From Anaerobaca lacustris (lineage in GTDB: Bacteria; Planctomycetota; Phycisphaerae; Sedimentisphaerales; Anaerobacaceae), in NCBI RefSeq assembly GCF_030012215.1, contig NZ_JASCXX010000034.1:1-44831 (forward strand): a stretch of 44,831 nucleotides of DNA, given 5' to 3'. Position 1 is the stretch's first letter; every line of letters starts with the position of its first letter. Below the pieces are notes generated by a model, which saw only the letters and a program-made list of their open reading frames with translations, was not told the DNA's origin and ran no database searches. Positions 1-25,867 of this stretch are shown piece by piece. A program made the position numbers and the translations under genes.

Positions 1-76
1 GCTCATCGAGCGCTTCCTTGACCTCTGGATCCCGTTTGACGATGGAGGAAAGCCAGTTTCGTGACCACGGCATCAT
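1..76 (-). CDS. Possible 5' end of a gene running off the left edge
   Basis: On the minus strand an ATG-ATG pair at 76-71 opens a frame that stays open to the window edge. It gives 25 residues with a natural-looking composition (MMPWSRNWLSSIVKRDPEVK then EALDE). A GGGAG lies about 13 bases upstream, which is far for a ribosome site. I do not recognise the product, and only this short head is visible. A plus-strand frame ending near 63 is an alternative reading. Confidence 0.3.
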   Translation of the reverse strand, partial: MMPWSRNWLSSIVKRDPEVKEALDE

Positions 77-832
77 TGTCTGCTATGCTCCCAACTCGAC
101 ACAGGCGCCACGCACCAGTTGCGAGAATACGGGCTTTCGCATCATCGCATCCTGATGGCTCCGCCGGCAGGCGGCGTCTCATTGGGTATTATCATCAAAA
201 CTGAAGGCCTAGCCCAAGGAAAAAGCAGAATGCGCGCGTCCGGGCACTGTCGTGGCGCGGCGGAACTTGCGACGGACAGCCCCCCGTTCTCTCGTCGGCA
301 GCGTGCGTTATCCGCCGTCGCGTGTGAGTCTATAGATGCGTCCGAGTTTGGCGGCGGGAGGCGGCGGCAGCTCCCAGTTCTCAGTTTCCGGTTCCCGGCT
401 GGCAGCGGCCTGCGGCCTGACACTTCTACCCGGCTACCCTTCTACTTCCCCGGCGAGATACGAGATCCGCGCGGAGTCCACCGCGAGCGACGCAATACGG
501 TGATTCGGAGGTGGCTTTGCGCTTCGCGGGGAGCGGGATTTGGTCAAAAACGTGCAACACCTTTTTGCGCGCGGGTGGTGACATTGAAGAAATTTTTACT
601 GTAGGCGGGGCAGTGGGTTACGGCGGTTTTGGGGCGGGAGGCGGAGAATTTGTGGTCAAAAACGTGCAACACCGTCCCTTTGTAGAGGCGGATGTTTTTC
701 CGCCCGTTCCGGCCGGCAGCCGGGACGCTTTGAAAAGGGAATAGAGACAGACAGGCTGGAGGCAGTAGGCCGGAGACCGGAGGCGCGAAGCGGATCACGG
801 GTCACGGCATGCGGGTGGACGCTTCTACATCT
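77..832. other. Gene-poor stretch
   Basis: No frame here looks like a real gene. Open frames on both strands have a low-complexity Arg/Pro/Gly composition and no credible ribosome site. The stretch holds a duplicated 20-mer (541-560 and 653-672) and GGAGGC/GTAGGC-rich text (about 750-785) resembling the filler between repeats at 5.1 and 7.0 kb. A partial GAGATAC-type motif lies near 452-466. Confidence 0.6.
541..672 (+). repeat. 20-bp direct repeat, two copies
   Basis: TGGTCAAAAACGTGCAACAC occurs exactly at 541-560 and again at 653-672, 112 bases apart. The sequence between the copies is not repeated. No gene accounts for the conservation, and the function is unknown. Confidence 0.8.
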
Positions 833-1190
833 CTGCCAAGATACGAGATACCAGATACGAGATACGCAGTTCGGGTCACGAGCGACGGCTCTTGGAGGTG
901 CGTCTTCAAATCCGAAAGGCGAATGTCGAAAACCGAAACAAGCACGAAGATTTCAATGCCCTAAATCCCAAACAACGTCTCTGCCGAGATACGAGATACC
1001 AGATACGAGATACGCGTTTCGGGTCACGTGCGACGGCTCCTGCGGGTGCGTCTTCAAATCCGAAACTCGAATATCGAAAACCGACACAAGCACGAAGATT
1101 CCAGTGCCCTAAATCCTAAACAACGTCTCTGCCGAGATACGAGATACCAGATACGAGATACGCAGTTCGGGTCGCGAGCGACCAGCGACG
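833..1190 (+). repeat. 148-bp tandem repeat, about 2.4 copies, with internal heptamers
   Basis: Units begin at 833, 981 and 1129, exactly 148 bases apart; the third is partial. Each starts CTGCC(A/G)A and then carries four heptamers of the form GAGATAC/CAGATAC, followed by TTCGGGTCRCG, a CGTCTTCAAATCCGAAA block and a CCTAAATCC-AAACAACGTCT tail. Copies differ at scattered positions. The same heptamer block, in opposite orientation, is found at 5093, 6776 and 7005. The third copy ends about 30 bases before the HNH-AP2 gene. Confidence 0.9.
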
Positions 1191-1222
1191 AGCGACGACT
1201 GACGATGGAAGGAGGCGTTTTC

Positions 1223-1969
1223 ATGTGCGATCGGATTTGTGCGAATTGTATGTATGCGGTTCGGGCGGTGGGGCGGTGGCATCGGGTGATGCTGTCGCGC
1301 TGGCCGGGGCTGCTGACGTGTATCAACCATCCGCAGGGGCCGGGCGAGCTGCACGAGGTGGTGGCGACGGGGACGTGCCGGAACTTCCGCGCGCGGCCCA
1401 GGCCGGTGGTGCGGGGCGAGCCGCCGGAGCCGCCGGACGATTCGATCCGCTACATCCCGCTGACGCGGGGCAAGTTCGCGATCGTCGATGCGGCCGATTA
1501 CGAGTGGCTCAGCAAGTACAAGTGGCTGGCGACCGGCAACGAGAAGCGCGGGTTCTACGCGGGCCGGCGCGTCGGCCAGGGCATGCTGCTGATGCACCGC
1601 GCGATCATGCAGCCGCCGCCGGGGATGGTGGTCGATCATATCAGCGGCAACGGGCTCGACCAGCGGCGCGCGAACCTGCGCGTGTGCAGCCAGCGGCACA
1701 ACTCGCACAACCGCCGGCCCAGCCGCTGGACCAGCTCGCGGTTCAAGGGCGTGTACTTCTGCAAGGCGACGGGCAAGTGGGTCGCGACGATCGGGTTCGA
1801 GGGCAGGAGCATCCACCTCGGCTCATTCGACGACGAGGTCGAGGCGGCGCGGGCGTACGACCGCAAGGCCCGCGAGCTGTTCGGCGAGTACGCCTACCTG
1901 AACTTCCCGGAGGATGTCGAGACAATGCAGGACCGGGGACTGAGCGGTGGGGTTTCGACGATAAGGTAG
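1223..1969 (+). CDS. HNH endonuclease with AP2 domain and Cys-rich N-terminus
   Basis: A 248-residue protein with three parts. Residues 1-55 hold a C-x2-C pair (CANC) and two later cysteines, suggesting a zinc knuckle. Residues about 125-165 form an HNH nuclease core (LLMHRAIMQ, VVDHISGNGLDQRRANLR, QRHNSHNR). Residues about 170-225 form an AP2-type DNA-binding domain (SRFKGVYFCKATGKWVATI, HLGSFDDEVEAARAYDRKA). HNH-AP2 proteins are typically homing or otherwise mobile endonucleases that nick or cut a specific site; activity here is inferred. The start at 1223 is chosen because GGAAGGAGG lies 8 bases upstream. An ATG at 1205 would overlap that site, and the open frame back to 1028 is translated repeat. 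No intron or intein host is visible. Confidence 0.88.
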   Translation: MCDRICANCMYAVRAVGRWHRVMLSRWPGLLTCINHPQGPGELHEVVATGTCRNFRARPRPVVRGEPPEPPDDSIRYIPLTRGKFAIVDAADYEWLSKYKWLATGNEKRGFYAGRRVGQGMLLMHRAIMQPPPGMVVDHISGNGLDQRRANLRVCSQRHNSHNRRPSRWTSSRFKGVYFCKATGKWVATIGFEGRSIHLGSFDDEVEAARAYDRKARELFGEYAYLNFPEDVETMQDRGLSGGVSTIR

Positions 1970-2001
1970 ACCGTGATTTACAGTGTATGGGACAGCCCCG
2001 A

Positions 2002-2805
2002 TCAGCAGGGGCGGGTTCTCACCTGAACGGTGAAGGCGCCGGGGACGGGGTGTTCGGAGGCGACGAAGAGGTACCCGCCGCCGCAGCCGGAGTACATCGC
2101 GCCGGGGTAGCGCGACTGGTAGAATCTCAGTAGCTCGATCAGGTCGACGCGCAGGGTTCGGTGGCGGACCGTGCCGGGCAGGATGGCCTCCCAGCATTTC
2201 ATGCACTCGTTCATCGAGGCGCCGAGGCGGTCGATGTCACGGGCGACGATGGCGTCGTAGCAGTCGCGGCCGGAGCGGCCGAGCCGGCCGATCCACGCGG
2301 GGTCGAGATTCTTCGTTTCGAGCGGGTTGTAGCCGTCGGGACGCGGGGCGACCGGCAGGATGTGCAGCACGCGCGACAGCCAGGCGGCGACGGCGGGGTC
2401 GTTGCACGACTCGATGTGCGCGGGGAACAGGCCCTCGTGACATCGGAAGTCGTAGTCGAGCCGGCTGACGCCGGGATAGATCAGGCCGATCATGTCCTGC
2501 GAGCCCGACGGCTCGGCCTGGCCATCGTTCTCGGCGCGGTAGAGTTCGCGGACGAGCTGGTCGGGGTCGCGGTCGGGCAGCGCGCCGCCCCAGAGTTCCA
2601 GTGCGATCTGGCGTGTGCTGCCGCAGATGCCGGCGCGGTCCATCCAGCGGAACTGCGGCTCGACCGCGACGACGACCATCGAGCCGGGCGGGTCGGGGTT
2701 GAGCTTCGAGGCGAAGGGCTGGTCGATCCAGCCGCCGGCCAGGGCGAGGCGGTACTGGAGCTTGCCGATGAGGTCGGTGATGTCGGGCGTTTGCGGTGGT
2801 TTCAT
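2002..2805 (-). CDS. GHMP-kinase-like protein
   Basis: A 267-residue soluble protein. Residues 17-50 (ALAGGWIDQPF, then a GSMVVVAVEP strand) resemble the substrate-binding start of GHMP sugar kinases (AGGGTDLP-like). GICGSTRQIAL (about 78-88) sits where the GHMP glycine-rich ATP loop is expected, and SGCGGGYLFVA near the C-terminus resembles the last GHMP motif. It lies 58 bases downstream of the GDP-mannose epimerase-like gene on the same strand, so it probably works in sugar or sugar-nucleotide metabolism, perhaps phosphorylating a sugar. The ATP loop is not canonical (no clear GLGSS), so activity and substrate are unproven. The gene itself is secure. Confidence 0.75.
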   Translation of the reverse strand: MKPPQTPDITDLIGKLQYRLALAGGWIDQPFASKLNPDPPGSMVVVAVEPQFRWMDRAGICGSTRQIALELWGGALPDRDPDQLVRELYRAENDGQAEPSGSQDMIGLIYPGVSRLDYDFRCHEGLFPAHIESCNDPAVAAWLSRVLHILPVAPRPDGYNPLETKNLDPAWIGRLGRSGRDCYDAIVARDIDRLGASMNECMKCWEAILPGTVRHRTLRVDLIELLRFYQSRYPGAMYSGCGGGYLFVASEHPVPGAFTVQVRTRPC

Positions 2806-2863
2806 GCGTCGATTCTACTCTGCACCGTGACGTTGGCAAGGACCATAGCGCGCGGCGGTTGGT

Positions 2864-3907
2864 TCAACTGACGGTATGCTTTCCGGCCTTGCGGGCATTG
2901 TACTGCTGCTCGATCCAGGCGTAGGTTTTTCGCAGACCGTCTTCGAGCGGGGTGCCGGGGGCCCAGCCGAGGACCTGTTGGATGAACGTGTTGTCGCTGT
3001 TGCGGCCGGCGACGCCCTTGGGGGCGGCCAGGTCGTGTTTGTGTTTGAGCTTGACGCCGCCTATTCTTTCGGCCAGACGCATCAGGTCGTTGATCGAGAT
3101 CAGGTGGTCGGAGCCGAGGTTGATCGGCGTGGCGATCAGCGCGTCGCAGTGCATGATCAGGTCGATGCCGAGGACGCAGTCGTCGATGTACATGAAGCTG
3201 CGGGTCTGCGTGCCGTCGCCCCAGATCACCACCTCGTCGAGTCCCTGGTCCTTGCACTCGATCACCTTGCGGCACAGCGCCGCCGGCGCCTTCTCCCGCC
3301 CGCCGTCCCATGTGCCCGGCTCGCCGTAGACGTTGTGGAAGCGGGCGATGTGCGTTTCGAAGCGGCGCTCGGCCCAGTACTCCTGGCAGAACATCTCGCT
3401 CATGAGCTTCTCCCAGCCGTAGCCGCGTTCGGCCATGGCAGGATACGCGTCGGACTCCTTCAGCGCGCGGACGTTGGGGTCCTTCTGGAGGTCGGTGTTG
3501 TAGGCGCAGGCCGACGACGAGAAGAAGTACCGCGTCGCGCCCGCGCGGTATGCCGCCTCGATCATGTGCGTATTGATCAGCACGCTCCGCAGGCACTCGA
3601 TGCGAAACCGCTCGATGAAGCCCATCCCGCCCATATCGGCCGCCAGATTGTACACCTCGACGGCGCCCTCGCAGGCCCGCTCGCAGTTGTCAGCGTTGCT
3701 GAGGTCCAGGCACAGGCACTCGACGCCGGGCGTCCGCTGGTACCACTGTGGCAGCGGCTTCTTGTCGATCGCGCGAATCCGCGTGAACCCCTGCTCGTGA
3801 AAGTACCGCACCAGCGCCCCGGCGATGAACCCGCCGGCACCGCCGACCACGATCAGGTCGTCCTTGCCGAGAACCGACGCCGCTGTAGGGTTGTTCTTGC
3901 CTGCCAT
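2864..3907 (-). CDS. GDP-mannose 3,5-epimerase-like NAD-dependent epimerase
   Basis: A 347-residue extended short-chain dehydrogenase. A Rossmann GGAGGFIAG (22-30) binds NAD and D48 is placed to bind the ribose. NLAADMGGMGFIE (88-100) and SSSACAYN (130-137) match the plant and bacterial GDP-mannose 3,5-epimerase pattern closely. The catalytic YxxxK is Y163/K167 (GYGWEK). RFHNVYGEPGTWDGGREKAPAAL and WGDGTQTRSF are also typical of that group. The expected reaction is GDP-D-mannose to GDP-L-galactose (or L-gulose) in the cytoplasm, feeding polysaccharide synthesis. It is transcribed away from the AraC gene and precedes the GHMP-kinase-like gene. A related nucleotide-sugar epimerase is the main alternative. 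Confidence 0.9.
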   Translation of the reverse strand: MAGKNNPTAASVLGKDDLIVVGGAGGFIAGALVRYFHEQGFTRIRAIDKKPLPQWYQRTPGVECLCLDLSNADNCERACEGAVEVYNLAADMGGMGFIERFRIECLRSVLINTHMIEAAYRAGATRYFFSSSACAYNTDLQKDPNVRALKESDAYPAMAERGYGWEKLMSEMFCQEYWAERRFETHIARFHNVYGEPGTWDGGREKAPAALCRKVIECKDQGLDEVVIWGDGTQTRSFMYIDDCVLGIDLIMHCDALIATPINLGSDHLISINDLMRLAERIGGVKLKHKHDLAAPKGVAGRNSDNTFIQQVLGWAPGTPLEDGLRKTYAWIEQQYNARKAGKHTVS

Positions 3908-3986
3908 CTCACGTCCTTTCCTGTCCGCCGGGCGCGGCCATTGGCCGGGCCTGCACCTTATTGACTTCTCAGTTGAACCACCGGCG

Positions 3987-3994
3987 ATTATAAT
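3987..3994. promoter_or_regulatory. AT-rich palindrome between the epimerase and AraC genes
   Basis: The divergent gap (3908-4058) has one AT-rich spot, ATTATAAT, which reads as a TATAAT -10 box on either strand. A perfect TTGACA lies on the minus strand at 4021-4016, but the spacing to it is 23 bases, too long for a normal promoter. Promoter assignment is therefore tentative. An AraC regulator commonly acts on such a divergent gap. Confidence 0.25.
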
Positions 3995-4058
3995 ACACGG
4001 GCATTCTCACAGAAATGTCAAATGTTGTCCAGTGAATGACGATTATTGACTGGTCGCT

Positions 4059-4937
4059 ATGAGCCACGACATCCGGGATACCGGCAGCGTTCCGACGTTC
4101 TACTCGAACCAGGTGCTCGAGGCCGAGCGGTTCTACCTCGACGCCGTCGGCGGGGCGGGCCAGCCGCTGGCGGTGGTCTGTGGCGGGCGGGAGCGGTGCG
4201 GGCCCGACTACCGGATCGACCGGGCCGATTTTCCCTTCCATTCGATCGAGTTCGTCGCCCGTGGCACGGGCGCGCTGCGCCTCAAAGGCCGAACCGTGGC
4301 TCTCTACCCCGGCCGCATCTTCACCTACGGGCCCGGTGTTGCCCACCTGATCACCACCGACGCCGGCGAGCCGCTTGTGAAATACTTCGTCGACTTCACA
4401 GGGCCTTCTGCTGCCAAAGTCCTGTCTGAAAACGACTTAGCTCCCGGTTCTGCCGTCCGTGTCGCCTCGCCCGATGCGGTCCTGCGGATCTTCGACGACC
4501 TGATCGCCAATGGCTCGTCCGGCACGCGCCACGGCCCGGCTATCTGCGCCAAGCTGGTCGAGCTGCTGGCCCTCAAGATCGCCGAAGCCGGGCTCGTCGA
4601 CGACCCCTATCGCACCGCGGCCTTCTCCACCTACCAAAGCTGCCGGCAGTACATCCGCGACCACTTCGCGACGCTGCGGGCCCTGGCGGAGATCGCCGAG
4701 GCCTGCCGGATCGATGAGGCCTACCTGTGCCGCCTCTTCAAGCGGTTCGACAGCCAGAGCCCCTATCAGTACCTCACCCAGCTCAAGATGGCCCAGGCCG
4801 CCCGAGCCCTCCAGCGAAACGACGCGCTCATCAAGCAGGTCGCCTTCGAACTGGGCTTCGCCGACCCATTCCACTTCTCCCGGGCCTTCAAGAAGGTCTT
4901 CGGCCTCTCGCCCGCCGCCTTCCGCAAGCTCCGCTGA
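4059..4937 (+). CDS. AraC-family transcriptional regulator
   Basis: A 292-residue regulator. The N-terminal half (about 20-150) is a cupin-like sensor fold with FPFHSIEFVARGTGAL and LYPGRIFTYGPGVAHLI, the AraC ligand-binding pattern. The C-terminal 100 residues carry two helix-turn-helix units: LAEIAEACRIDEAYLCRLFKRF, then IKQVAFELGFADPFHFSRAFKK with the terminal GLSPAAFRKLR. It presumably senses a sugar or sugar derivative and controls the divergent epimerase/GHMP genes; this is inferred from position only. No strong ribosome site precedes ATG 4059. A repeat field starts straight after its stop. Confidence 0.93.
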   Translation: MSHDIRDTGSVPTFYSNQVLEAERFYLDAVGGAGQPLAVVCGGRERCGPDYRIDRADFPFHSIEFVARGTGALRLKGRTVALYPGRIFTYGPGVAHLITTDAGEPLVKYFVDFTGPSAAKVLSENDLAPGSAVRVASPDAVLRIFDDLIANGSSGTRHGPAICAKLVELLALKIAEAGLVDDPYRTAAFSTYQSCRQYIRDHFATLRALAEIAEACRIDEAYLCRLFKRFDSQSPYQYLTQLKMAQAARALQRNDALIKQVAFELGFADPFHFSRAFKKVFGLSPAAFRKLR

Positions 4938-4982
4938 CGCCCCCATGCAGCAGGCCGGAGGCTGTAGGCGGCAGGCCGCAGG

Positions 4983-5046
4983 TATGCGTAGGATGGACTT
5001 CAGCCCATGCCGCCTGTTGCGCGGGCGGCGAGAGGAAATACGTATA
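4983..5046 (+). repeat. Hairpin-bearing repeat, copy 1
   Basis: The block from GTAGGATGG through CTTCAGCCCATGCCGCCTG to GCGGGCGGCGAGA recurs at 5480-5543 with a few changes. In the second copy GGGCTTCAGCCC is a perfect short inverted repeat; here one base of the stem is changed (GGACT). A shorter relative (GGATGGGCTTTAGCCCATGC) lies at 7555-7574. Confidence 0.75.
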
Positions 5047-5049
5047 CTT

Positions 5050-5293
5050 ACGTACGTCTAAAGGTATGTCGCGACATCGAAGGGGGGGACCCGTATCTCG
5101 TATCTGGTATCTCGTATCTCGGGGGGGCGAGAGTGAGGACGGAGGGCAGAAGGGTGCGGGCCGGAGACCGTAGGGAGCAGGCTGGAGACTGTGGGCCGTA
5201 GGCTGTAGACAGGGAAGACTCAGAACCAAGCACTCAACACTCACAACTCGTCGCGGCCAAAGGCGACTACGTATAACTACGTACGCCAAAAGG
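5050..5293 (+). repeat. 244-bp repeat, copy A
   Basis: This 244-bp block is repeated at 6733-6976 with no difference I could find by eye. Parts in order: ACGTACGTCTAAAGG, palindrome ATGTCGCGACAT, a G-run, four heptamers GTATCTC/GTATCTG, purine-rich GGAGGGCAGAAGGG and GTAGGGAGCAGGCTGGAG text, CACTCAACACTCACAACTCG, CGCGGCCAAAGGCG, then TACGTATAACTACGTACG. No coding frame explains it. Confidence 0.9.
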
Positions 5294-5479
5294 AATGTCA
5301 CGACATCGAAGGGGGAGGCGCGTCGCTGTGTGGTCGCCGGGGGGCTCGGGATGAGGCGTTGTCCTGGCGAGTATGTGGCACGTTGCGGGATCTCAGAAGG
5401 CGGTAGTTGCGATTGGCAGGTAACGGAGGCAGCAGGATGCTCTTGTAGAAGAGGACTGTAGGCCAGAGACCGAAGGTGG

Positions 5480-5574
5480 TATGCGTAGGATGGGCTTCAG
5501 CCCATGCCGCCTGTTGTGCGGGCGGCGAGAAAGGATACGTATAACTACGTACGCCAAAAGGTATGTCGCGACAT
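5480..5574 (+). repeat. Hairpin repeat copy 2 joined to the 40-bp head
   Basis: This is the second copy of the hairpin block (GGATGGGCTTCAGCCCATGC) followed without a break by TACGTATAACTACGTACGCC and the palindrome ATGTCGCGACAT (5563-5574). The heptamer block is absent downstream, so this is a shortened member of the 244-bp family. Confidence 0.75.
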
Positions 5575-5871
5575 CGCAGGGATGGGGGGTGCGACTGCCA
5601 TCTGAGATTTCGAATTTCAGGTCCGCAGGGGCGGGTGAACCGGCTACGCGGTGGGTTACGCCTTGCGGACACGGGAGGACCGAGGACGGAAGGCAGAAGG
5701 GTGCGGTCGGAGGTTTTAGGCGGCAGGCCGCAGGGAGAATGGACTCAAAACTCAGCACTCAAAAAGTGCCGCGGCCAAAGGCCGTGCCTTCCGCATCATC
5801 CAACGCCTGCTCGACCCGCCTGCCCCTTCGGCCGGATGTCCGCCACGGACCCCTTTAGATTCTCCCACGTA

Positions 5872-5901
5872 TTGAAATCGAGGCCCCTATTGTGGTATTA
5901 T
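5872..5901 (+). promoter_or_regulatory. Candidate promoter for the 5.9-6.7 kb genes
   Basis: TTGAAA (5872-5877) and TATTAT (5896-5901) are separated by 18 bases and resemble sigma-70 elements. Transcription would start near 5908, about 20 bases before the short frame at 5928. Confidence 0.45.
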
Positions 5902-5927
5902 TGCCAGCGTGGCGTATAGGAGTTACG

Positions 5928-5984
5928 ATGATGAAGCGACGTGGGAAATCCTGGCTTGAGGTTGTCCATGCAGAGAGAACATAA
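5928..5984 (+). CDS. Possible 18-residue leader peptide
   Basis: A short frame reads MMKRRGKSWLEVVHAERT then TAA. Its ATG is preceded by TAGGAG at 5-base spacing, a better ribosome site than the gene at 6011 has, and by a plausible promoter at 5872-5901. It ends 26 bases before the next gene and is in a different frame from it. It could be a leader peptide or the remnant of a displaced gene start. No attenuator hairpin is obvious. Confidence 0.35.
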   Translation: MMKRRGKSWLEVVHAERT

Positions 5985-6010
5985 CTTTCACCCTTGATCG
6001 TCCAAAAGCC

Positions 6011-6655
6011 ATGAAAAGAACTCTTATCTGTCTCCTCCTGGTGGTGCCGGCCGTGCTGCTGGGCATCGGTGCCGTGCTTGCGTTGCCAGTGGGGCTTCTT
6101 GCGTTGGCCTTCAGAGTCGACTCGACGCCTGACCGTGCGATGCTCGCGCTACCCGACGGCGTGCACGCCATCGAACATTCGCGCGTCCGACTCCCTGCCA
6201 TCTGTGCCGAGTATAGTCGGGAGGTCACCTATGTCACGAATGGGGTGCGGGGTAAGACAACCCCACTCCAGGTCGACGGCTGCGGCGGTTATCCCATTAA
6301 CTGCTATCTGATCGAAACGCCGCGCGGCCCCTTGCTCCGCCTCGACGACGCGGTATCCCAGCATCTGCTGGACGTGACCACCCAGACGACTTACGCGGTG
6401 TGGCGCGTGTACGGTGATACCTACATTGGGGAACTGCGGGACGAGCGTGCCTCCTTCAACGCGTCCATGGCGAACGATGATCCGTCCACCCGTTCGGTAA
6501 CCATCGGCGGCAGGCAAGCGAAGCCCCTGACCGACCTGACGCAAGATGCCCCCGAGGTGTATGTCGGACGATTCGGCGCCGGGCCCGGCGGTTTTCGCTT
6601 CACACCGGCCAGCGAATCACCCGAGGTCGCCATCCGCCACCACTTCGATCGGTAG
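6011..6655 (+). CDS. Unknown exported or membrane-anchored protein
   Basis: A 214-residue protein. MKRT followed by about 30 hydrophobic residues (6-35) is a signal anchor or uncleaved signal, so the rest is probably outside the cytoplasm. The body contains two nearby Cys (GCGGYPINCYLIETPRG, about 97-111) and a polar, glycine-rich C-terminus. I recognise no family. There is no clear ribosome site at ATG 6011 and it is flanked on both sides by repeat fields. It may depend on the short frame just upstream for translation. Confidence 0.72.
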   Translation: MKRTLICLLLVVPAVLLGIGAVLALPVGLLALAFRVDSTPDRAMLALPDGVHAIEHSRVRLPAICAEYSREVTYVTNGVRGKTTPLQVDGCGGYPINCYLIETPRGPLLRLDDAVSQHLLDVTTQTTYAVWRVYGDTYIGELRDERASFNASMANDDPSTRSVTIGGRQAKPLTDLTQDAPEVYVGRFGAGPGGFRFTPASESPEVAIRHHFDR

Positions 6656-6732
6656 GAGAAGGCGCGCGCAGCAAACGGTGCACCACTTTCTCCAGCGTGT
6701 TACGCGGGCGGCAAGAAGGGATACGCATAACT

Positions 6733-6976
6733 ACGTACGTCTAAAGGTATGTCGCGACATCGAAGGGGGGGACCCGTATCTCGTATCTGGTATCTCGTAT
6801 CTCGGGGGGGCGAGAGTGAGGACGGAGGGCAGAAGGGTGCGGGCCGGAGACCGTAGGGAGCAGGCTGGAGACTGTGGGCCGTAGGCTGTAGACAGGGAAG
6901 ACTCAGAACCAAGCACTCAACACTCACAACTCGTCGCGGCCAAAGGCGACTACGTATAACTACGTACGCCAAAAGG
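6733..6976 (+). repeat. 244-bp repeat, copy B
   Basis: Same length and, by eye, the same sequence as 5050-5293, in the same orientation. Its last 15 bases (ACGTACGCCAAAAGG) are also the start of a third copy, so B and C form a tandem pair. Palindromes ATGTCGCGACAT lie at 6749-6760 and 6978-6989. Confidence 0.9.
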
Positions 6977-7173
6977 TATGTCGCGACATCGAAGGGGCGG
7001 ACCCGTATCTCGTATCTGGTATCTCGTATCTCGGGGGGGGGTCGAGAGTGAGGACGGAGGGGCAGAAGGGTGCGGGCCGGAGACCGTAGGGAGCAGGCTG
7101 GAGACTGTAGGCCGTAGGCTGGAGACAGGGAAGACTCAGAACCAAGCACTCAACACTCACAACTCGCCGGCCG
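6962..7173 (+). repeat. Repeat copy C, diverged
   Basis: It follows copy B directly and matches it through the palindrome, heptamers (7005-7033), purine-rich text and the ACTCAACACTCACAACTCG tail. It has small insertions in the G-runs and substitutions (GTAGGCCGTAGGCTGGAG). It ends before the CGCGGCCAAAGGC tail and lacks a following TACGTATAAC head. Confidence 0.85.
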
Positions 7174-7762
7174 TAGACCGCCCAATAATCAATAATCACT
7201 CATCAATCATCCGTAGTCAATTCCCTCGCTCAACACTCAAAACTCGTCGCGGCCTTTGGCTGCGACCCCCTCGCCATGCAGCGCCTCCTCGACCGTCTAC
7301 CCCGACCGCTGGACGCCTGTCATTGACCCTGACGCCGGAGTCCCGCACCCATTCCGGCCCAGCGGAAAAGGTACCGGACACGAATGGCACTGCCGTGAGT
7401 TTGGTGGCGCAGACGGTCATACGGGACGCAGCGAAGCAGAGGTTCTTTTCGGATTGTTGTTGCCCTCTTGTTCTGCGCCGCTCAATTGGCATCATGTCTT
7501 TGGCCTACCTTGGCCGATAGATTCGATGCCCTCCTTGGCTGGCCGCGCCTTGTAGGATGGGCTTTAGCCCATGCGGGGTCTTTTTATCGGTCTGCGGTTC
7601 ATCCGTGGCCGAAGGTCGGAGACACTCGCAATGACGCCGGTGCAAGAGAAAGAGAATGGGCGGAAAGCACCTGCTGAGATCCGTGCCTACGCCACGGGCG
7701 GACCAGAGTGGAACCAGAAACCGTGGTGCGTCCCCAGTAAGTCCCAGTAGTTCCAGTCGGTA

Positions 7763-7776
7763 CGAGGCATGCCTCG
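7763..7776. repeat. REP-like palindrome
   Basis: CGAGGCATGCCTCG is a perfect 14-base palindrome followed by CCCC. It is a partial member of the GGGGCGA-N-GCATGC-N-TCGCCCC family also seen at 10385, 15170, 23518 and 40815. Confidence 0.7.
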
Positions 7777-7919
7777 CCCCTGCCGCCGAACGGGTCGCCG
7801 CATACGCGAAATGTGCTTGCATCCCGGTGTTCTTCCCAGCATAATACGGATGGTGACGACGGAGGGACGCCTGGAGACAGCCCTCTTGTCCTCGCCTGAT
7901 GCCGATTTCGAGAGGGACA

Positions 7920-8408
7920 ATGCAGGGAGAGACGTTCGCGTATTCTGGCGACCAAGGTGAAACGCACGACACACGTTGTCCGCTGTTCGGCGGAGAAGTG
8001 AAGCGGACGTGCGGCGACGTGTGCATTCTCAACATCGCCACGTTCTTCTTGTTCACGATGTTGACGCCCTTCCTGTTCATGGTGGCCATGTATGTGCGGT
8101 CGACGCCGCTGAGGATGCTGATGCTGCCGTGGGCGGGCATCGCCCAGTCACCCAGCCTGAAAGGCAAGGAATGCCAGACCTACTCAAGGGCCCGGATGAG
8201 ATTGTGCGCTCGCAACTTGGAACAAAGACTCAGCGGGCCACGTGCAGATGGGCACGAATACTACGAACCCTGGATGGACGTCCCCGGCCGGTACAAACGC
8301 GAGATCCAAGGCCCTGGACGTCGGTATGAAGTCGACTGGTATAACGGCAAGTACCAGGGCGAGTTGATCGTCGACCACGTCGTCTACGTCCACGTCAGCC
8401 GCTATTAG
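7920..8408 (+). CDS. Small membrane protein related to the next gene's C-terminus
   Basis: A 162-residue protein with one or two hydrophobic segments (ILNIATFFLFTMLTPFLFMV, about 39-58). Its C-terminus (YKREIQGPGRRYEVDWYNG, then VDHVVYVHVSRY) closely parallels the tail of the next gene (YKQKITGPARRYIVQPERY, then EHVVYIYLIFS), so the two are paralogues in that domain. The function is unknown. ATG 7920 has AGAGGG close upstream; ATG 7899 in the same frame is the alternative. The upstream half is weakly supported and may be the remains of a longer relative. It lies 26 bases before the next gene. Confidence 0.65.
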   Translation: MQGETFAYSGDQGETHDTRCPLFGGEVKRTCGDVCILNIATFFLFTMLTPFLFMVAMYVRSTPLRMLMLPWAGIAQSPSLKGKECQTYSRARMRLCARNLEQRLSGPRADGHEYYEPWMDVPGRYKREIQGPGRRYEVDWYNGKYQGELIVDHVVYVHVSRY

Positions 8409-8434
8409 ATCGAGTCCGCAACGAGGGGCATACC

Positions 8435-9484
8435 ATGGACAATGAGGATGGCGGAGCGCGAGGGCCGGAACGCTCGCCTGAGTTTGTGGCGGTGCCTGGG
8501 GGACTCCAGTGTCCGCAGTGCGGCAGCACGCGCGTTCGGAGCCGGAACCGGGCGCTTTCGCGCAACGTCGTTGCTCTGCTTGCTGTTGGGCCATTGCTGG
8601 TGCTGGCGTTCGCGTTCGAGAGCTGTATCTTCGGGCTGCTCTGGTTCGTTGCCGTGGTACTTCCGGCGTTCACACTGCCCGTGTCGGTGTGCGTTGCCGC
8701 CGTAGGCCGGCATCGGTGCAGAGACTGCGGCTGTCGGTTCTTGCCGGGCCGGGAGGCGGAACGCGTGCCATTCCCTTGGTGTTCATGTGGTCTGAATATT
8801 GCCTTGTTGGTCGTCTTGTGTGCCATCGGCCCCATCGTCATGCGCTGGTGGGACAACTGGGGCAGGGCCTCTCATACGATGGCAGACACAAACGGCATCT
8901 TCACGGCAGGTTTTCTGGTCTGGGCTTCACTTGTCTATCAGATCGCCATCTACAAGGGGCTGGGCAGGCGACTGCGCAGCCGATTCGTCTGGCTGGTGTT
9001 GTTCATCTGGCCGGGAATCGTCCTGGGGAGCTCGGTGTTCAGCATTTCGACGCCTTCGGCTCGGGCCGAGGCGCTGCTTTCGCGCGCCAGACTGGCACCG
9101 TTGCCGGCGTCCGCGACGGGGATCCGTGTCTATGAGTGGTCGTCACCGTTTTCGGGTGAGGAGTTCTTGCGGTTTGCTGCCGAGCCGAACGATGTCGAGA
9201 AGTTCCTTCGCGAGTCGCCTGCGTTGCAGGGCCAGGAGCCAGAGCATTTCTCGGCAGAGAGAATGCGCCTGCCGACGTCCGGCAACCCTGAAAAGGATTG
9301 GGAGTCTCAGGTGGCCGGTCACGAGACATACGTACCCAGGCCGACGATACCCGACTGGTACAAGCAGAAGATCACCGGTCCGGCTCGACGTTACATCGTC
9401 CAGCCCGAACGCTATCAATACCCCGGACACGTCCTTGTCGACGATGAGGAGCACGTCGTCTACATCTACCTGATCTTCAGTTGA
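8435..9484 (+). CDS. Unknown multi-pass membrane protein with split zinc-ribbon motif
   Basis: A 349-residue protein. Near residue 28 there is a CPQCGS knuckle, then two hydrophobic segments (about 47-90), then CRDCGCRF (about 95). The two CxxC pairs could form one zinc site with membrane helices looped between. Further helices lie near 115-135, 150-165 and 178-198. The C-terminal 130 residues (IRVYEWSSPFSGEEFLRFAAE, then YKQKITGPARRY) form a probable extracytoplasmic domain shared at its end with the preceding gene. GAGGGG gives a good ribosome site for ATG 8435. The function is unknown; it is likely co-transcribed with its neighbours. Confidence 0.85.
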   Translation: MDNEDGGARGPERSPEFVAVPGGLQCPQCGSTRVRSRNRALSRNVVALLAVGPLLVLAFAFESCIFGLLWFVAVVLPAFTLPVSVCVAAVGRHRCRDCGCRFLPGREAERVPFPWCSCGLNIALLVVLCAIGPIVMRWWDNWGRASHTMADTNGIFTAGFLVWASLVYQIAIYKGLGRRLRSRFVWLVLFIWPGIVLGSSVFSISTPSARAEALLSRARLAPLPASATGIRVYEWSSPFSGEEFLRFAAEPNDVEKFLRESPALQGQEPEHFSAERMRLPTSGNPEKDWESQVAGHETYVPRPTIPDWYKQKITGPARRYIVQPERYQYPGHVLVDDEEHVVYIYLIFS

Positions 9485-9510
9485 CCCTATGCCGCGATTG
9501 GGAACGAGCC

Positions 9511-10266
9511 ATGAGCAAAGAGGATATGGAACTCACGTCACGAGGTGACATGAAGGCCGCGAAGGGCGGTTTGCCGTGGTATACGTGGGATGTGGTCCTG
9601 CTGGGCGCGCTGTTTTTGTTCGGGACCTTCGGCAACTCGTTTCCTCTATTGTCGTATCTCGGCGGCCTGCGCAACGACAAGAACATCGTGTTCATGGCGC
9701 GTGTGTGGTTCTTCTTGCTCACTCCGATCGCCTGCGTTTGTCTGGCGGCGTTGATCGTCCGCATCGTGTGCTTATGGCCCCTGCGTATCGTCCGCCTCAG
9801 AAGGCTGATCGTGCTCCAGATTGTCGCGAGCCTCGGCACGCTCGCATATGTGGGGCTGCCATTCCTGCGGCTTGGGCCGCCGGAACACAAAATGCATCTG
9901 TGGGGCATGCGAAGGTATGTGCAGACGCAGGTGGATGTCCCCGCGATTCGCGCCTGGCTGACCAGCCTCGATCCAAACGATTGGCACGACGTTCAGATTG
10001 ATTTCCGAAGGAATGGAGAGGGGCAACTCGTGCCGAGGTCGAGCGATCTCGTTCTTCCGGCGTGTATCCTGAACTTGAAGCCTCGATCTGTCAGCCTTTC
10101 GTTTGTCGAAGGCTGTGGTTTCGGAGCCACTCTGAGATGGGGTGACCGTTTGCTCGGCACATGGGGCATGGCCATCGGCCCTGAGACGACCGGCGCGCCG
10201 CCGGACCTGTCGGGCGGGCCTGAGTGGGATGGTGTCCGTATCTGGCACGACCGTGAGTTCGAATAG
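9511..10266 (+). CDS. Unknown membrane protein, paralogue of the gene at 39759-40487
   Basis: A 251-residue protein with three or four hydrophobic segments in residues 20-130, then a soluble domain. That domain contains AIRAWLTSLDPNDW (about 147-160) and LRWGDRLLGTWGMAIGP (about 208-224). The minus-strand protein at 39759-40487 has matching LQAWAMSLDPNDC and LSWDQSKAGTFGLVIGDP, so the two are distant paralogues. ATG 9511 follows GGGAACGAG; the frame is open back to a TTG at 9481, less likely. It starts 26 bases after the previous gene. The function is unknown. Confidence 0.82.
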   Translation: MSKEDMELTSRGDMKAAKGGLPWYTWDVVLLGALFLFGTFGNSFPLLSYLGGLRNDKNIVFMARVWFFLLTPIACVCLAALIVRIVCLWPLRIVRLRRLIVLQIVASLGTLAYVGLPFLRLGPPEHKMHLWGMRRYVQTQVDVPAIRAWLTSLDPNDWHDVQIDFRRNGEGQLVPRSSDLVLPACILNLKPRSVSLSFVEGCGFGATLRWGDRLLGTWGMAIGPETTGAPPDLSGGPEWDGVRIWHDREFE

Positions 10267-10569
10267 GCCAAGCCGACAGCAAGGTGACCCGCCTGCGGCG
10301 GGTTGGCCCTTCCATGCTTGGGTATGCCCCTTCGACGAACTCAGATCGTGCATCTGTGATGGGCTCACTGTAAGCATCGTAGGGAGGGGCGAGGCATGCC
10401 TCGCCCCTACGGACATACGATGGGTGCTGTTCGTAGTAGCGTTTTGTGTTGCGTTGGGGGCGTGAATGCCGCAGAATGGGCGGGCATCGGCGGCGGGATG
10501 CTCTTGTCGGGTCTTCCGCGAGCGGCTTCGTCGATGGCAGCAACGGAACGCCGACACGTGGAGAATACG
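10267..10569. other. 303-bp gap with dispersed repeats
   Basis: No gene is seen. The gap holds CCCTTCGACGAACTCAGATC (10328-10347), related to repeats at 12.7, 25.5 and 40.8 kb, a 24-base palindrome at 10385-10408, and GTTCGTAGTAGCG near 10430, resembling the element at 10892-10918. Confidence 0.6.
10385..10408. repeat. REP-like perfect palindrome
   Basis: This is a 24-base perfect palindrome whose core is GGCGAGGCATGCCTCGCC, the longest member of the GCATGC-centred family in the window. It could fold into a stable stem in RNA or a cruciform in DNA. Confidence 0.85.
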
Positions 10570-10851
10570 ATGGCAACAGCGGCAGCACGGCATATTCTGG
10601 TCGAGACGCAAGAGAAGTGCGAAGACCTCAAGAAGCAGATCGAAGCGGGGGCCGACTTCGCAGACTTGGCCCAGAAGCATTCGAAGTGTCCGTCGGGCCG
10701 GCAGGGCGGCGACCTCGGCACGTTCGGTCCGGGCCAGATGGTGAAAGAGTTCGACGAGGTCGTCTTCAGCGCCGAGGTCGGCAAGGTCCAGGGCCCGGTG
10801 CAGACGCAGTTCGGCTATCACCTGGTCGAAGTGACCAGCCGGACCGCGTAA
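10570..10851 (+). CDS. ppiC: Parvulin-type peptidyl-prolyl isomerase
   Basis: A 93-residue stand-alone rotamase domain, the same length as E. coli PpiC. It shows ARHILVETQEKCEDLKKQI, FADLAQKHSKCPSGRQGGDL, GTFGPGQMVKEFDEVVFS and VQTQFGYHLVEV, the classic parvulin pattern. It catalyses cis-trans isomerisation of X-Pro bonds and, having no signal peptide, should be cytoplasmic. The start at 10570 is chosen because the conserved domain begins there and GTGGAGAATACG gives a ribosome site; the upstream frame from 10396 includes a repeat palindrome. Confidence 0.93.
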   Translation: MATAAARHILVETQEKCEDLKKQIEAGADFADLAQKHSKCPSGRQGGDLGTFGPGQMVKEFDEVVFSAEVGKVQGPVQTQFGYHLVEVTSRTA

Positions 10852-10891
10852 CGAACGCGGCAAGGGCAGGCCGCAGGGTTCGGTGGCATAG

Positions 10892-10918
10892 GTAACGCCT
10901 GACGGCGTCACTACGAAC
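10892..10918 (+). repeat. Short inverted-repeat element next to an ABC gene start
   Basis: The element GTAACGCCTGACGGCGTCAC then TACGAAC contains an ACGCC/GGCGT stem. It ends one base before the ABC transporter ATG. A related element lies in reverse orientation at 40691-40714. It occupies the place where a ribosome site would be expected. Confidence 0.6.
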
Positions 10919-10919
10919 G

Positions 10920-11843
10920 ATGGCAACGCTTGAGGTCGAATCACTGACGAAACGCTACGGCTCGGCTCGCGGGGTCGAGCTCGTGACGTTTGCGATCGAG
11001 CCGGGCGAGATTTTTGGCTATCTCGGCCCCAACGGCTCGGGCAAGACCACCACGATCCGCTGCATCATGGGCCTGCTTCGGCCGACGAGCGGGCAGGTCC
11101 GCGTTCTGGGCCGTCGCGTGGTTGCCGGCCGGGCCACGGAGCACACTCGCCTCGGCTACCTGCCCGGCGAATTTCACATCTGGCCCGGAATCCGCGCCGC
11201 TCGTTCGCTGAACGTCCTCGGTCGTCTCGGCGGCGGCCGCCGGATCGCCGAGCGGCGCCGGCAGTTGGCCGAGCGGTTCGACCTCGACCTGCGCCGTCGC
11301 GTGGGCGATCTGTCCAAGGGCAACCGCCAGAAGGTGGCCCTGATCTACGCATTCCAGCACGAGCCGGACGTGCTCGTCCTCGACGAGCCGACGGCGGGGC
11401 TCGACCCGCTGATGCGACAAACGGCGCTCGAGCTGATCCGCGAGTCGGCCGAACGCGGTGCGACCGTGCTGCTGTCGTCGCACGACCTGGGCGAGGTCTC
11501 CGCCGTCTGCGGCCGCGCCGGCATCCTGCGCGAGGGCCGGCTCATCGAGGTCGCGCCCATCTCGCAGATCGTCCAGAGCAGCGAGCACCGGCTGACGGTG
11601 TGGTTCGCCGACGGACATCTGGCCCCGCGCCTGCCGGGCGAGCTGGCCGGCGTGCGCGTCGTGCGCCAGAAGCCCGGCGTGCTGGAGATCGCGTACCAGG
11701 GGCCGGCCAATCCGGTCCTCAAGTGGCTCGGCCGATTTGCGGTCGAGCGGATCGCCACGCCGCAGATATCACTCGAAGACGCCTTCATCCAGTACTACCG
11801 CCAGCCGTCCAGCGCATCGGCCGCGCGAGGAGGTGACGCATGA
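10920..11843 (+). CDS. ABC transporter ATP-binding protein
   Basis: A 307-residue ATPase of the ABC-2 exporter type. It has Walker A GPNGSGKT (36-43), signature LSKGNRQK (about 125), Walker B VLVLDEPTAGLDPL (about 151-164) and the switch histidine in SSHDLGEVS. About 90 extra C-terminal residues form the accessory domain usual for this class (CcmA/NatA-like). It powers the permease encoded by the next gene, which overlaps it by four bases. The substrate is unknown. No Shine-Dalgarno sequence is visible before ATG 10920 because a repeat element abuts it. Confidence 0.95.
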   Translation: MATLEVESLTKRYGSARGVELVTFAIEPGEIFGYLGPNGSGKTTTIRCIMGLLRPTSGQVRVLGRRVVAGRATEHTRLGYLPGEFHIWPGIRAARSLNVLGRLGGGRRIAERRRQLAERFDLDLRRRVGDLSKGNRQKVALIYAFQHEPDVLVLDEPTAGLDPLMRQTALELIRESAERGATVLLSSHDLGEVSAVCGRAGILREGRLIEVAPISQIVQSSEHRLTVWFADGHLAPRLPGELAGVRVVRQKPGVLEIAYQGPANPVLKWLGRFAVERIATPQISLEDAFIQYYRQPSSASAARGGDA

Positions 11844-12667
11844 GTGCCCCGGCCCGGCTGCGGTTTCCCTTCCGCCTGCTGCGGTTCTGGTTCGTGCGGA
11901 TTGCCCCGGCGTGGCTCGGCATCGCGATCCTGATCTTCTTCATGCAGATCGCCGTGGCCGCCATCGTCCACGACAACCACAACGTCCGCACGTTCCTGGC
12001 CTTTCTCAACCTGCTTCCGTCGATCGTCAAGAGCGCCCTGGGCGGCGACCTGCTCGATTCCGGCAGCATGACGGCCCTGCTGACCATCGGCTACCAGCAC
12101 CCGTTCGTCCTGTTCCTGCACATGCTGTACGCGGTGGGCGTGCCGGCGGGCCTGCTCACGGCCGAGGTGCAGAAGGGTACGATGGAGCTGATCCTCAGCC
12201 GGCCCGTCGCCAAGACGCACGTCTACCTCTGCGCGGCGATCGTGACGCTGTTCGGCCTGTTCGGCCTGGACCTTGTCATGTTCGCCGGGACGGCGGCGTC
12301 GGTGCGGCTGTACCAGTTCAGCGAGCCGATCGATCTGTACCTGTTCTTTCGCATCGCGACCACCGCCGGCCTGCTGGCCGCCACCTTCGGGGCCTTCGCG
12401 CTTCTGTTCGCGGCCACGTTCCGGCGGCTCTACTGCGCCGTCGGCGTCTCCGTCGGCTTCCTGACGATCAACTACTTCATCGCCATCGTGGCCCAGTGGT
12501 GGCCTGCGATGCAATTCCTCCGGCGCGCGACCTTGTTCTATCTGATCTACTACTCCAACCTCTGGCTGGGCTGGCCCGTCCGCAACATGGCGATCCTCGC
12601 CGCCATCGCGCTGGCCGCCGCCGTCCTCGGCGCCCTGATCTGGCGCCGCCGCGACCTGTTCGTCTGA
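11840..12667 (+). CDS. ABC-2 type transporter permease
   Basis: A 275-residue integral membrane protein with about six hydrophobic segments (near 22-45, 95-115, 130-160, 180-200, 205-225 and 245-268). VQKGTMELILSRPVAKTHVYL (about 110-130) is the characteristic cytoplasmic loop of ABC-2 permeases that contacts the ATPase. It overlaps the ATPase gene in an ATGA junction and has GAGGAGGTGACGC as ribosome site, so the two are one exporter made as a pair. The substrate cannot be told from sequence. Confidence 0.92.
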   Translation: MSAPARLRFPFRLLRFWFVRIAPAWLGIAILIFFMQIAVAAIVHDNHNVRTFLAFLNLLPSIVKSALGGDLLDSGSMTALLTIGYQHPFVLFLHMLYAVGVPAGLLTAEVQKGTMELILSRPVAKTHVYLCAAIVTLFGLFGLDLVMFAGTAASVRLYQFSEPIDLYLFFRIATTAGLLAATFGAFALLFAATFRRLYCAVGVSVGFLTINYFIAIVAQWWPAMQFLRRATLFYLIYYSNLWLGWPVRNMAILAAIALAAAVLGALIWRRRDLFV

Positions 12668-12731
12668 CCATCCCCAATCCCGGCCGATTGGGGCGGCGGG
12701 TTCACGTAGGTCGTGCGTCCCATTCGGCGTT

Positions 12732-12809
12732 GCTCAGAGCCCGCCCTGAACACCGTTGAAGGGGCAGGCTCTCGCACGACATTGGGGCAGGCGAACGAGG
12801 ACGTTCGCC
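12732..12809 (+). repeat. Composite dispersed repeat: 38-bp block plus hairpin
   Basis: A 38-bp block (GCTCAGAGCCCGCCCTGAAC then ACCGTTGAAGGGGCAGGC) is an exact reverse complement of 25543-25580. It is followed by a hairpin with 8-bp stem GGCGAACG/CGTTCGCC and 4-base loop AGGA (12790-12809). The copy at 25.5 kb has the same arrangement. Confidence 0.85.
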
Positions 12810-25427: not shown

Positions 25428-25867
25428 AATCGGTCCCCTGCATTGCGTTTTCGGAATCTGCCCATTCTCTATACCGCCGAACGCTCCGCGCCGCAATGCC
25501 CCACAACTCCCGTCCTATCCGTAGAGCGTGCGTCCCCGCACGGCCTGCCCCTTCAACGGTGTTCAGGGCGGGCTCTGAGCGAAGTCGAACGGGACAAGGC
25601 GAGCGGGGACGCTCGCCCTACACATCGCCCCTGCCATACATGATGGGCCCGTGTGTGTGAAGGTGTCCAGTCCTGGGAACGGTTTGAGCTGCCACCCCAT
25701 GCCAGGAGACCTCCACGCGTTCCTCGTCGGGCGAATGCGGCAAGTGAAACCTGCCCGTCGGCGCTTGATTCCAACCGGCGACGAAGGCATACTGTGGTGG
25801 TTCCGGCACCCCGAGACAGATCGGGGACCGGGGGACGCAAGAACGTGACTCTGAGGAGCGACCTGTC
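25428..25867. other. 440-bp divergent gap
   Basis: No gene is supported. The left part holds the composite repeat at 25543-25617. The right part has a short stem CCCCGA/TCGGGG near 25810-25827 followed by a G-rich stretch, in the likely leader of the ADP-ribosylglycohydrolase gene. I found no convincing riboswitch. Confidence 0.5.
25543..25617 (-). repeat. Composite dispersed repeat, inverted copy
   Basis: Positions 25543-25580 are the exact reverse complement of the 38-bp block at 12732-12769. The hairpin GGCGAGCG-GGGA-CGCTCGCC (25598-25617) has the same 8-bp stem and 4-base loop plan as the one at 12790, with different bases in the stem, showing compensated changes. Confidence 0.85.

What the first reader, a model, noticed from the sequence alone, without database searches (positions are those of the whole stretch)
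5050..7173. 244-bp block duplicated without visible divergence around one small gene
5050-5293 and 6733-6976 have equal length and no difference I could see, in a region where other repeat copies have drifted. A third, diverged copy (6962-7173) follows in tandem. The identity implies recent duplication, gene conversion or active spread. The gene at 6011 lies between two direct copies, so recombination could delete it.
Basis: seen in the sequence. Interest (0 to 1): 0.6.

Follow-up and report, generated by a model that had tools for sequence, protein, structure and literature searches.

The report
Recently homogenised repeat flanking a gene
Two identical 245-letter stretches of non-coding DNA on either side of a small gene in what is most likely a planctomycete bacterium are parts of an older patchwork of repeats, probably made identical recently by one copy overwriting the other; close relatives with one repeat block and no gene show how the gene could be lost, which is an ordinary kind of bacterial genome change.

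Summary
5049-5293 and 6732-6976 are identical over 245/245 bases, inside a 300-bp direct repeat at 96%. A third copy (6951-7172) follows in tandem, 212/218 identical to the second plus 6 gap positions. The block is non-coding: a mosaic of a palindromic ~45-nt motif and 7-base-period tracts, one of which recurs at 22 other places in the genome. In two congeners one array sits at the orthologous place beside an AraC-type gene, without the small gene. The outer 'tails' of the two window arrays are only 69% alike (gaps left out), no closer to each other than to the sister species, whereas the inner block is identical. That fits old arrays with a recently homogenised core (gene conversion or template switching) better than fresh duplication. 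'Active spread' is not supported: the whole unit was found nowhere else in the held genome. Loss of the gene between direct repeats is plausible but unproven. Collapse of copies in a draft assembly remains a real rival. New member of a known kind, of modest interest.

The parts
5049..5293 (+). copy A of the exact 245-bp block
6732..6976 (+). copy B of the exact 245-bp block
6951..7172 (+). copy C, tandem to B, 212/218 identical to B plus 6 gap positions
5012..5048 (+). left flank of A, homologous to 6695-6731 but 9/37 different: left edge of the identical tract
6695..6731 (+). left flank of B, diverged homologue of 5012-5048
5039..5084 (+). m motif 1 (consensus TACGTATAACTACGTACGCC.AAAGGTATGTCGCGACATCGAAGGGG, holding the 12-bp palindrome ATGTCGCGACAT)
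5268..5313 (+). m motif 2
5536..5581 (+). m motif 3, in a further module that was not homogenised
6722..6767 (+). m motif 4
6951..6996 (+). m motif 5, junction of tandem copies B and C
5092..5121 (+). 30-nt heptad tract CGTATCT CGTATCT GGTATCT CGTATCT CG (copies at 6775-6804 and 7004-7033)
5151..5210 (+). 21-nt-period (3 x 7) tract (copies at 6834-6893 and 7067-7126)
4988..5010 (+). GTAG-tagged palindromic repeat (GTAG-REP-like); others start at 5485 and 7552
   Evidence: class described in PMC3733652 (passages)
5751..5873 (+). tail 1, end of the left array; 83/120 identical to tail 2
7229..7353 (+). tail 2, end of the right array
7365..7383 (+). degenerate copy of the AAAAAGTACCGGACACC word that also follows the array in G005 and G002
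7327..7806 (.). interval that holds a synteny break: 2016-5318 (and the tail) matches G005 contig C22, 7807 onward matches G005 contig C134
6011..6655 (+). small gene between the direct copies: 214 aa, hydrophobic N-terminus (by eye), no family match, not found in the five congeners searched
4059..4937 (+). AraC-family regulator just upstream of the left array; anchors the orthologous locus in relatives
2864..3907 (-). NAD-dependent epimerase/dehydratase, syntenic neighbour

Best explanation
The block is the core of a locus-specific intergenic repeat module downstream of an AraC-family gene, built of a palindromic ~45-nt motif (m) at each end and degenerate 7-base-period tracts between. Shown: the window genome has two direct arrays of this module around gene 6011; the inner block is identical in two copies; outer parts of the same arrays are diverged. 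Inferred: the arrays are old, and a recent non-reciprocal exchange between the direct copies (RecA-type gene conversion, or template switching between the m motifs) overwrote one core with the other; the tandem B/C pair arose by local duplication. Inferred and not shown: a crossover between the same copies would remove 1,683 bp including gene 6011 and leave one module, which is the configuration seen in two sister species.
For: Exact 245/245 identity with abrupt edges: 9/37 differences to the left, 2/18 to the right. The tails of the two arrays differ at 37/120 sites against 0/245 in the core (Fisher p = 1.8e-20). Tail 1 and tail 2 differ from each other more than tail 1 differs from G005 (37/120 vs 31/162, p = 0.025) and not significantly more than tail 2 does (37/120 vs 45/200, p = 0.11); against G002 the tails are 119/149 and 72/91 identical. 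So the array duplication looks about as old as the species split, or older. With gaps left out, A, B and C are 97-100% alike and 87-91% like the orthologous module of G005, the pattern of concerted evolution. A-B is also closer than B-C (0/245 vs 6/218, p = 0.011). Four-fold sites of three neighbouring genes differ by 0.235-0.25 (JC) from G005 and A differs from G005 at 39/298, so an upper 95% limit of about 1.2% for 0/245 (own arithmetic) means at most roughly a tenth of the time since that split. G005 and G002 carry one array at the orthologous place and no gene 6011. In 721 kb of this genome the other repeat pairs of 80 bp or more are at most 92.9% identical.
Against: The tails are short (120 aligned sites), hold small palindromes, may evolve faster than the core, and the tail alignments compared span different stretches (5751-5873 against tail 2, 5676-5845 against G005). 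Only one of the two tail comparisons with G005 is below 0.05, and none is corrected for multiple tests. No reads were available, so exact identity could be an assembly product. In G003 and G004 the DNA downstream of the AraC gene also differs although no array is there, so the array is not needed for change at this place.
Confidence: 0.6

Rival explanations
1. Assembly artefact: near-identical copies were collapsed to one consensus in a draft assembly, or a join was made through the repeat, so that identity is overstated or the arrangement is wrong.
For: G000 is held as 117 contigs, and the window is the whole of contig C34. The exact stretch is longer than common short reads (general knowledge; the sequencing method is not known here). 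A synteny break lies within 0.5 kb of the array.
Against: Copy C keeps its differences from B, and A and B keep 2 differences in the 18 bases just right of the exact tract, so copies were not blindly merged. G005 carries the module at the same place.
Confidence: 0.17
2. Plain recent duplication: the block was copied once, recently, from one side of the gene to the other, or gene 6011 was inserted into a fresh tandem pair, without conversion of older copies.
For: 0/245 differences; B and C are tandem, so duplication does happen here.
Against: Homology continues beyond the identical tract on both sides at lower identity (9/37 and 2/18 different), and both arrays carry diverged tails (69%). That asks for older copies underneath.
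Confidence: 0.13
3. Transposition: the block is, or belongs to, a small mobile element moved by a RAYT-type Y1 transposase or another enzyme.
For: GTAG-tagged palindromes start at 4988, 5485 and 7552. Y1_Tnp (PF01797) matches: 3 in the own genome and 7 in G005, where one gene lies about 0.7 kb beyond the orthologous array. The m core occurs at 5 places in G003, with up to 2 mismatches.
Against: The full unit is only at this locus in G000, and the G005 and G002 copies are at the orthologous place. The GTAG palindromes lie outside the identical block. Target duplications were not tested.
Confidence: 0.06
4. Composite cassette: the two direct arrays plus gene 6011 form a unit that excises and inserts by recombination between the arrays.
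For: The gene sits between direct copies and was not found in the five congeners searched.
Against: No second copy of the unit in the own genome; outside G000 the gene has only a 27-31% homologue in G049 and a marginal match in G174.
Confidence: 0.04

Closest known systems
Heptanucleotide simple-sequence repeats of bacteria (TAACTGA repeats of Beggiatoaceae and cyanobacteria; GGGAATC repeats of Xanthomonas; four-heptad elements of Geobacter metallireducens)
   Same: Dispersed 7-nt units in short arrays; the Geobacter element and most Xanthomonas arrays have four units; heptamers are reported as over-represented among such repeats in many bacteria (PMC4679880, PMC4692102, PMC2700814; passages read)
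   Different: Other unit sequence (CGTATCT/GGTATCT and relatives); here the tract is only one component of a module with a 229-bp period. The Geobacter elements also lie inside genes
GTAG-tagged REPs and RAYT transposases (PMC3733652; passages read)
   Same: GTAG followed by a palindrome, several copies per genome; Y1 transposase genes in the genus; Planctomycetes named in that paper as hosts
   Different: The identical block does not contain the GTAG palindrome and was not seen at other sites in this genome
Gene conversion and deletion between direct repeats in bacterial genomes (general knowledge; PMC12046097 seen only as a search listing with the start of its abstract)
   Same: Identical tract with abrupt edges inside more diverged duplicated DNA; a gene between direct repeats
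   Different: Inferred from one assembly and relatives, not observed in a population
Bacterial satellites/minisatellites (PMC6749651; passages read)
   Same: Tandem B/C copies with a 229-bp period; the arrangement of module copies differs between species
   Different: Very few copies, and interrupted by a gene

Membership tests
Gene conversion tract between direct repeats | stretch of (near) identity inside duplicated DNA that is more diverged on both sides | tested here: met
   0/245 inside, 9/37 and 2/18 just outside; tails 37/120
Gene conversion tract between direct repeats | non-reciprocal exchange seen in lineages or reads | not testable with these tools
   no reads and no close strains were available
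Heptanucleotide simple-sequence repeat | tandem 7-nt units | tested here: met
   period 7, 4.3 copies; own-genome excess at lag 7 among periods that are not multiples of 3, at the 20-of-28 setting
Heptanucleotide simple-sequence repeat | dispersed at many sites | tested here: met
   23 of 31 reported own-genome matches are to this tract alone (two overlap, so 22 places; three of them in the window); 40 of 52 candidates scored. That each site is non-coding was not checked
GTAG REP / RAYT system | GTAG next to a palindrome, several copies | tested here: met
   up to 3 mismatches: 3 in the window, 6 in 480 kb of other own DNA, 0 in 40 kb of G003, 0 in 160 kb of four genomes of other families of the order. 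The family definitions of PMC3733652 were not applied
GTAG REP / RAYT system | the 245-bp block itself is or contains such a REP | tested here: not met
   the GTAG palindromes start at 4988, 5485 and 7552, outside both exact copies
Insertion sequence / transposon | copies of the unit at unrelated sites | tested here: not met
   full unit only at this locus in the own genome; G005 and G002 copies at the orthologous site. The m core alone is at 5 places in G003
Insertion sequence / transposon | target-site duplication | not tested
   no clean empty site to compare
Structured RNA element | folds better than shuffled sequence, or matches an Rfam family | tested here: not met
   z = 0.17 for 4981-5319, + strand; the only Rfam match up to E = 1 in 1-12000 is below its gathering score and elsewhere (mir-128, 8518-8569, E 0.33)

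The most novel reading that the evidence does not exclude
The 30-nt four-heptad word (CGTATCT CGTATCT GGTATCT CGTATCT CG) would be a dispersed element copied as a whole by an unknown templated process: it keeps its odd third unit in several planctomycete records and in one labelled Omnitrophota, which slippage in place would not explain.
Probability: 0.1. Interest if true: 0.6.

Novelty: new member of a known kind. Interest (0 to 1): 0.27.

Why it matters
It is a clear small example, in a little-studied lineage, of intergenic repeats kept alike by exchange while their surroundings drift, and of a gene placed where the same exchange could delete it. The wider family of 7-base-period words in these genomes could be mapped to ask how such words spread.

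Tried and rejected
Structured RNA: the module folds no better than shuffles, and Rfam gave nothing above threshold. Phage or plasmid origin: no match of 4981-7400 in the phage or plasmid records and no exact 28-mer of the heptad tract in the viral contigs. Families for gene 6011: none in Pfam, PHROGs or NCBIfam. Consensus scans of 4900-7900: 2 terminator-like sites (1.7 expected) and 4 promoter-like sites (1.1 expected), one of them at 5872-5901 upstream of gene 6011; not used.

Array as the cause of the synteny break: considered, not claimed. All five congeners searched have some match to the AraC protein, but only G002, G003, G004 and G005 have a close one (71-93% identity, in G003 over residues 129-292 only). 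In all four the DNA after it differs from the window, including G003 and G004, which have no array there.

Heptads as the main finding: the first counts (47 regions at lag 7 in 320,958 bases at the 20-of-28 setting) used stretches ten of which had been chosen because they held matches to repeat queries, so they were set aside. The count used is: 480,000 bases in 24 stretches not chosen by matches (20, 4 of the 14 own stretches). At 20 of 28 it gives 10 regions at lag 7 against 0 to 2 at lags 4, 5, 6, 8, 10, 11, 13, 14, 16, 17, 19 and 20, but 11, 11, 7 and 9 at lags 9, 12, 15 and 21, multiples of the codon. At 19 of 28, lag 6 (18) exceeds lag 7 (12). In 160 kb of three other genomes of the family and G003 lag 7 gives 7 and lag 6 gives 5; in 160 kb of four genomes of other families lag 7 gives 1. 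The excess is real but modest.

A query that was wrong: the fourth protein (window 1225-1968) was read in another frame than the HNH-AP2 gene (1028-1969); its empty result means nothing and is not used.

Full report
OBSERVATION. The two copies are identical over 245 bases (5049-5293 = 6732-6976) and lie in a 300-bp direct repeat that is 96% identical. The edges are abrupt: 9 of 37 bases differ on the left and 2 of 18 on the right. The third copy starts at 6951, 229 bp after copy B's matching start at 6722, and is 212/218 identical to B with 6 gap positions. When 720,958 bases of the same genome (window plus 34 stretches) were compared with themselves by megablast, the three pairs of this array scored 93.3-96.4%; the 15 other pairs of 80 bp or more scored at most 92.9%.

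ANATOMY. The block is non-coding as far as homology shows and is composite. Each end carries a ~45-nt motif (m) with the 12-bp palindrome ATGTCGCGACAT; five copies of its 18-nt core lie in the window and none elsewhere in the 5.73-Mb assembly, up to 2 mismatches. Between them lie a 30-nt tract of four 7-base units and a 21-nt-period tract. The four-heptad tract is dispersed: 23 of the 31 reported own-genome matches are to it alone; two overlap, so 22 places, three of them at 836-1162 of the window (40 of 52 candidates scored). Among 61 genomes (the own one and 60 relatives) 21 match some part of the 300-bp unit, often this tract only: 5 of 6 in the genus, 15 of 31 in the rest of the family, 1 of 24 in the rest of the order; at most 12 candidates a genome were scored. 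In G003 the matches are to the m motif and other parts instead. An exact 28-mer of the tract was found in 7 stretches of genome records from five assemblies, four labelled as planctomycetes and one as Omnitrophota (records near the window's genome may be left out; misbinning of the Omnitrophota contig was not checked). GTAG-tagged palindromes lie beside the block but not in it.

RELATIVES. G005 and G002 carry the AraC gene, the epimerase and the next gene in the same order. G005 has the module at the orthologous place at 84% over 293 bases, followed by a second, diverged body and a tail; G002 has a shorter one. Beyond the array both differ from the window: G005 continues with a beta-lactamase-like fragment (by eye) and a Y1-transposase gene, G002 with an 866-aa protein. 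Gene 6011 has no match in G001-G005; a weak homologue (27-31% identity) is in G049, and of 298 genomes drawn from the class 3 match: the own one, G049, and G174 at E = 6.7e-4 with two stops. From 7807 on the window matches another G005 contig, so a synteny break lies just beyond the array. G003 and G004, without an array, also differ downstream of the AraC gene.

AGE. The tails of the two arrays differ at 37 of 120 sites; tail 1 differs from G005 at 31 of 162 and tail 2 at 45 of 200; against G002 they differ at 30 of 149 and 19 of 91 (gaps left out, spans not the same). The core differs at 0 of 245. Fisher tests (not corrected): core against tails 1.8e-20; tails against each other compared with tail 1 against G005 0.025, and with tail 2 against G005 0.11. 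So the arrays are probably about as old as the species split or older, and the core was homogenised since. Neighbouring genes differ from G005 by 0.235-0.25 at four-fold sites.

MECHANISM. Best reading: non-reciprocal exchange between direct copies 1,683 bp apart. The crossover version of the same event would delete gene 6011 and leave one module. G005 and G002 look like that product, but may equally show the state before the gene arrived. Assembly collapse cannot be excluded without reads.

LITERATURE. Heptamer repeats are known in bacteria and reported as over-represented in many genomes (PMC4679880, PMC4692102, PMC2700814; passages read). GTAG REPs and RAYTs are known, with Planctomycetes among their hosts (PMC3733652; passages read). 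Satellites were surveyed in PMC6749651 (passages read). I saw no description of this word family in the listings; the search for planctomycetes with heptamer, intergenic and tandem repeats returned PMC6749651 alone. Subscription journals are mostly not held.

VERDICT.

Noticed in passing
window 827-1182: A second small tandem array (148-bp period, 2.4 copies) with the same CGAGATA heptads, next to and partly overlapping an HNH-AP2 ORF (1028-1969, true start uncertain); G005 has the same region on contig C14 with the units arranged differently.
   Followed up: partly
L074 16146-19847 (G000:C3): Island of many degenerate 7-base-period tracts whose unit word changes along the tract.
   Followed up: partly
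L067, L068, L069, L107 (G003): The m core occurs at 5 separate places in G003, two of them 2.1 kb apart.
   Followed up: partly
window 7899-9484: Two neighbouring proteins (169 and 349 aa) share a C-terminal region (39% identity); about 0.5 kb between the matching parts is missing in G005.
   Followed up: partly
window 12717-12769 and 25543-25595: Inverted pair of a 53-nt repeat, 92% complementary.
   Followed up: no
L062: A contig labelled Omnitrophota holds the heptad word once exactly and twice with 4 or 5 mismatches; misbinning not excluded.
   Followed up: no
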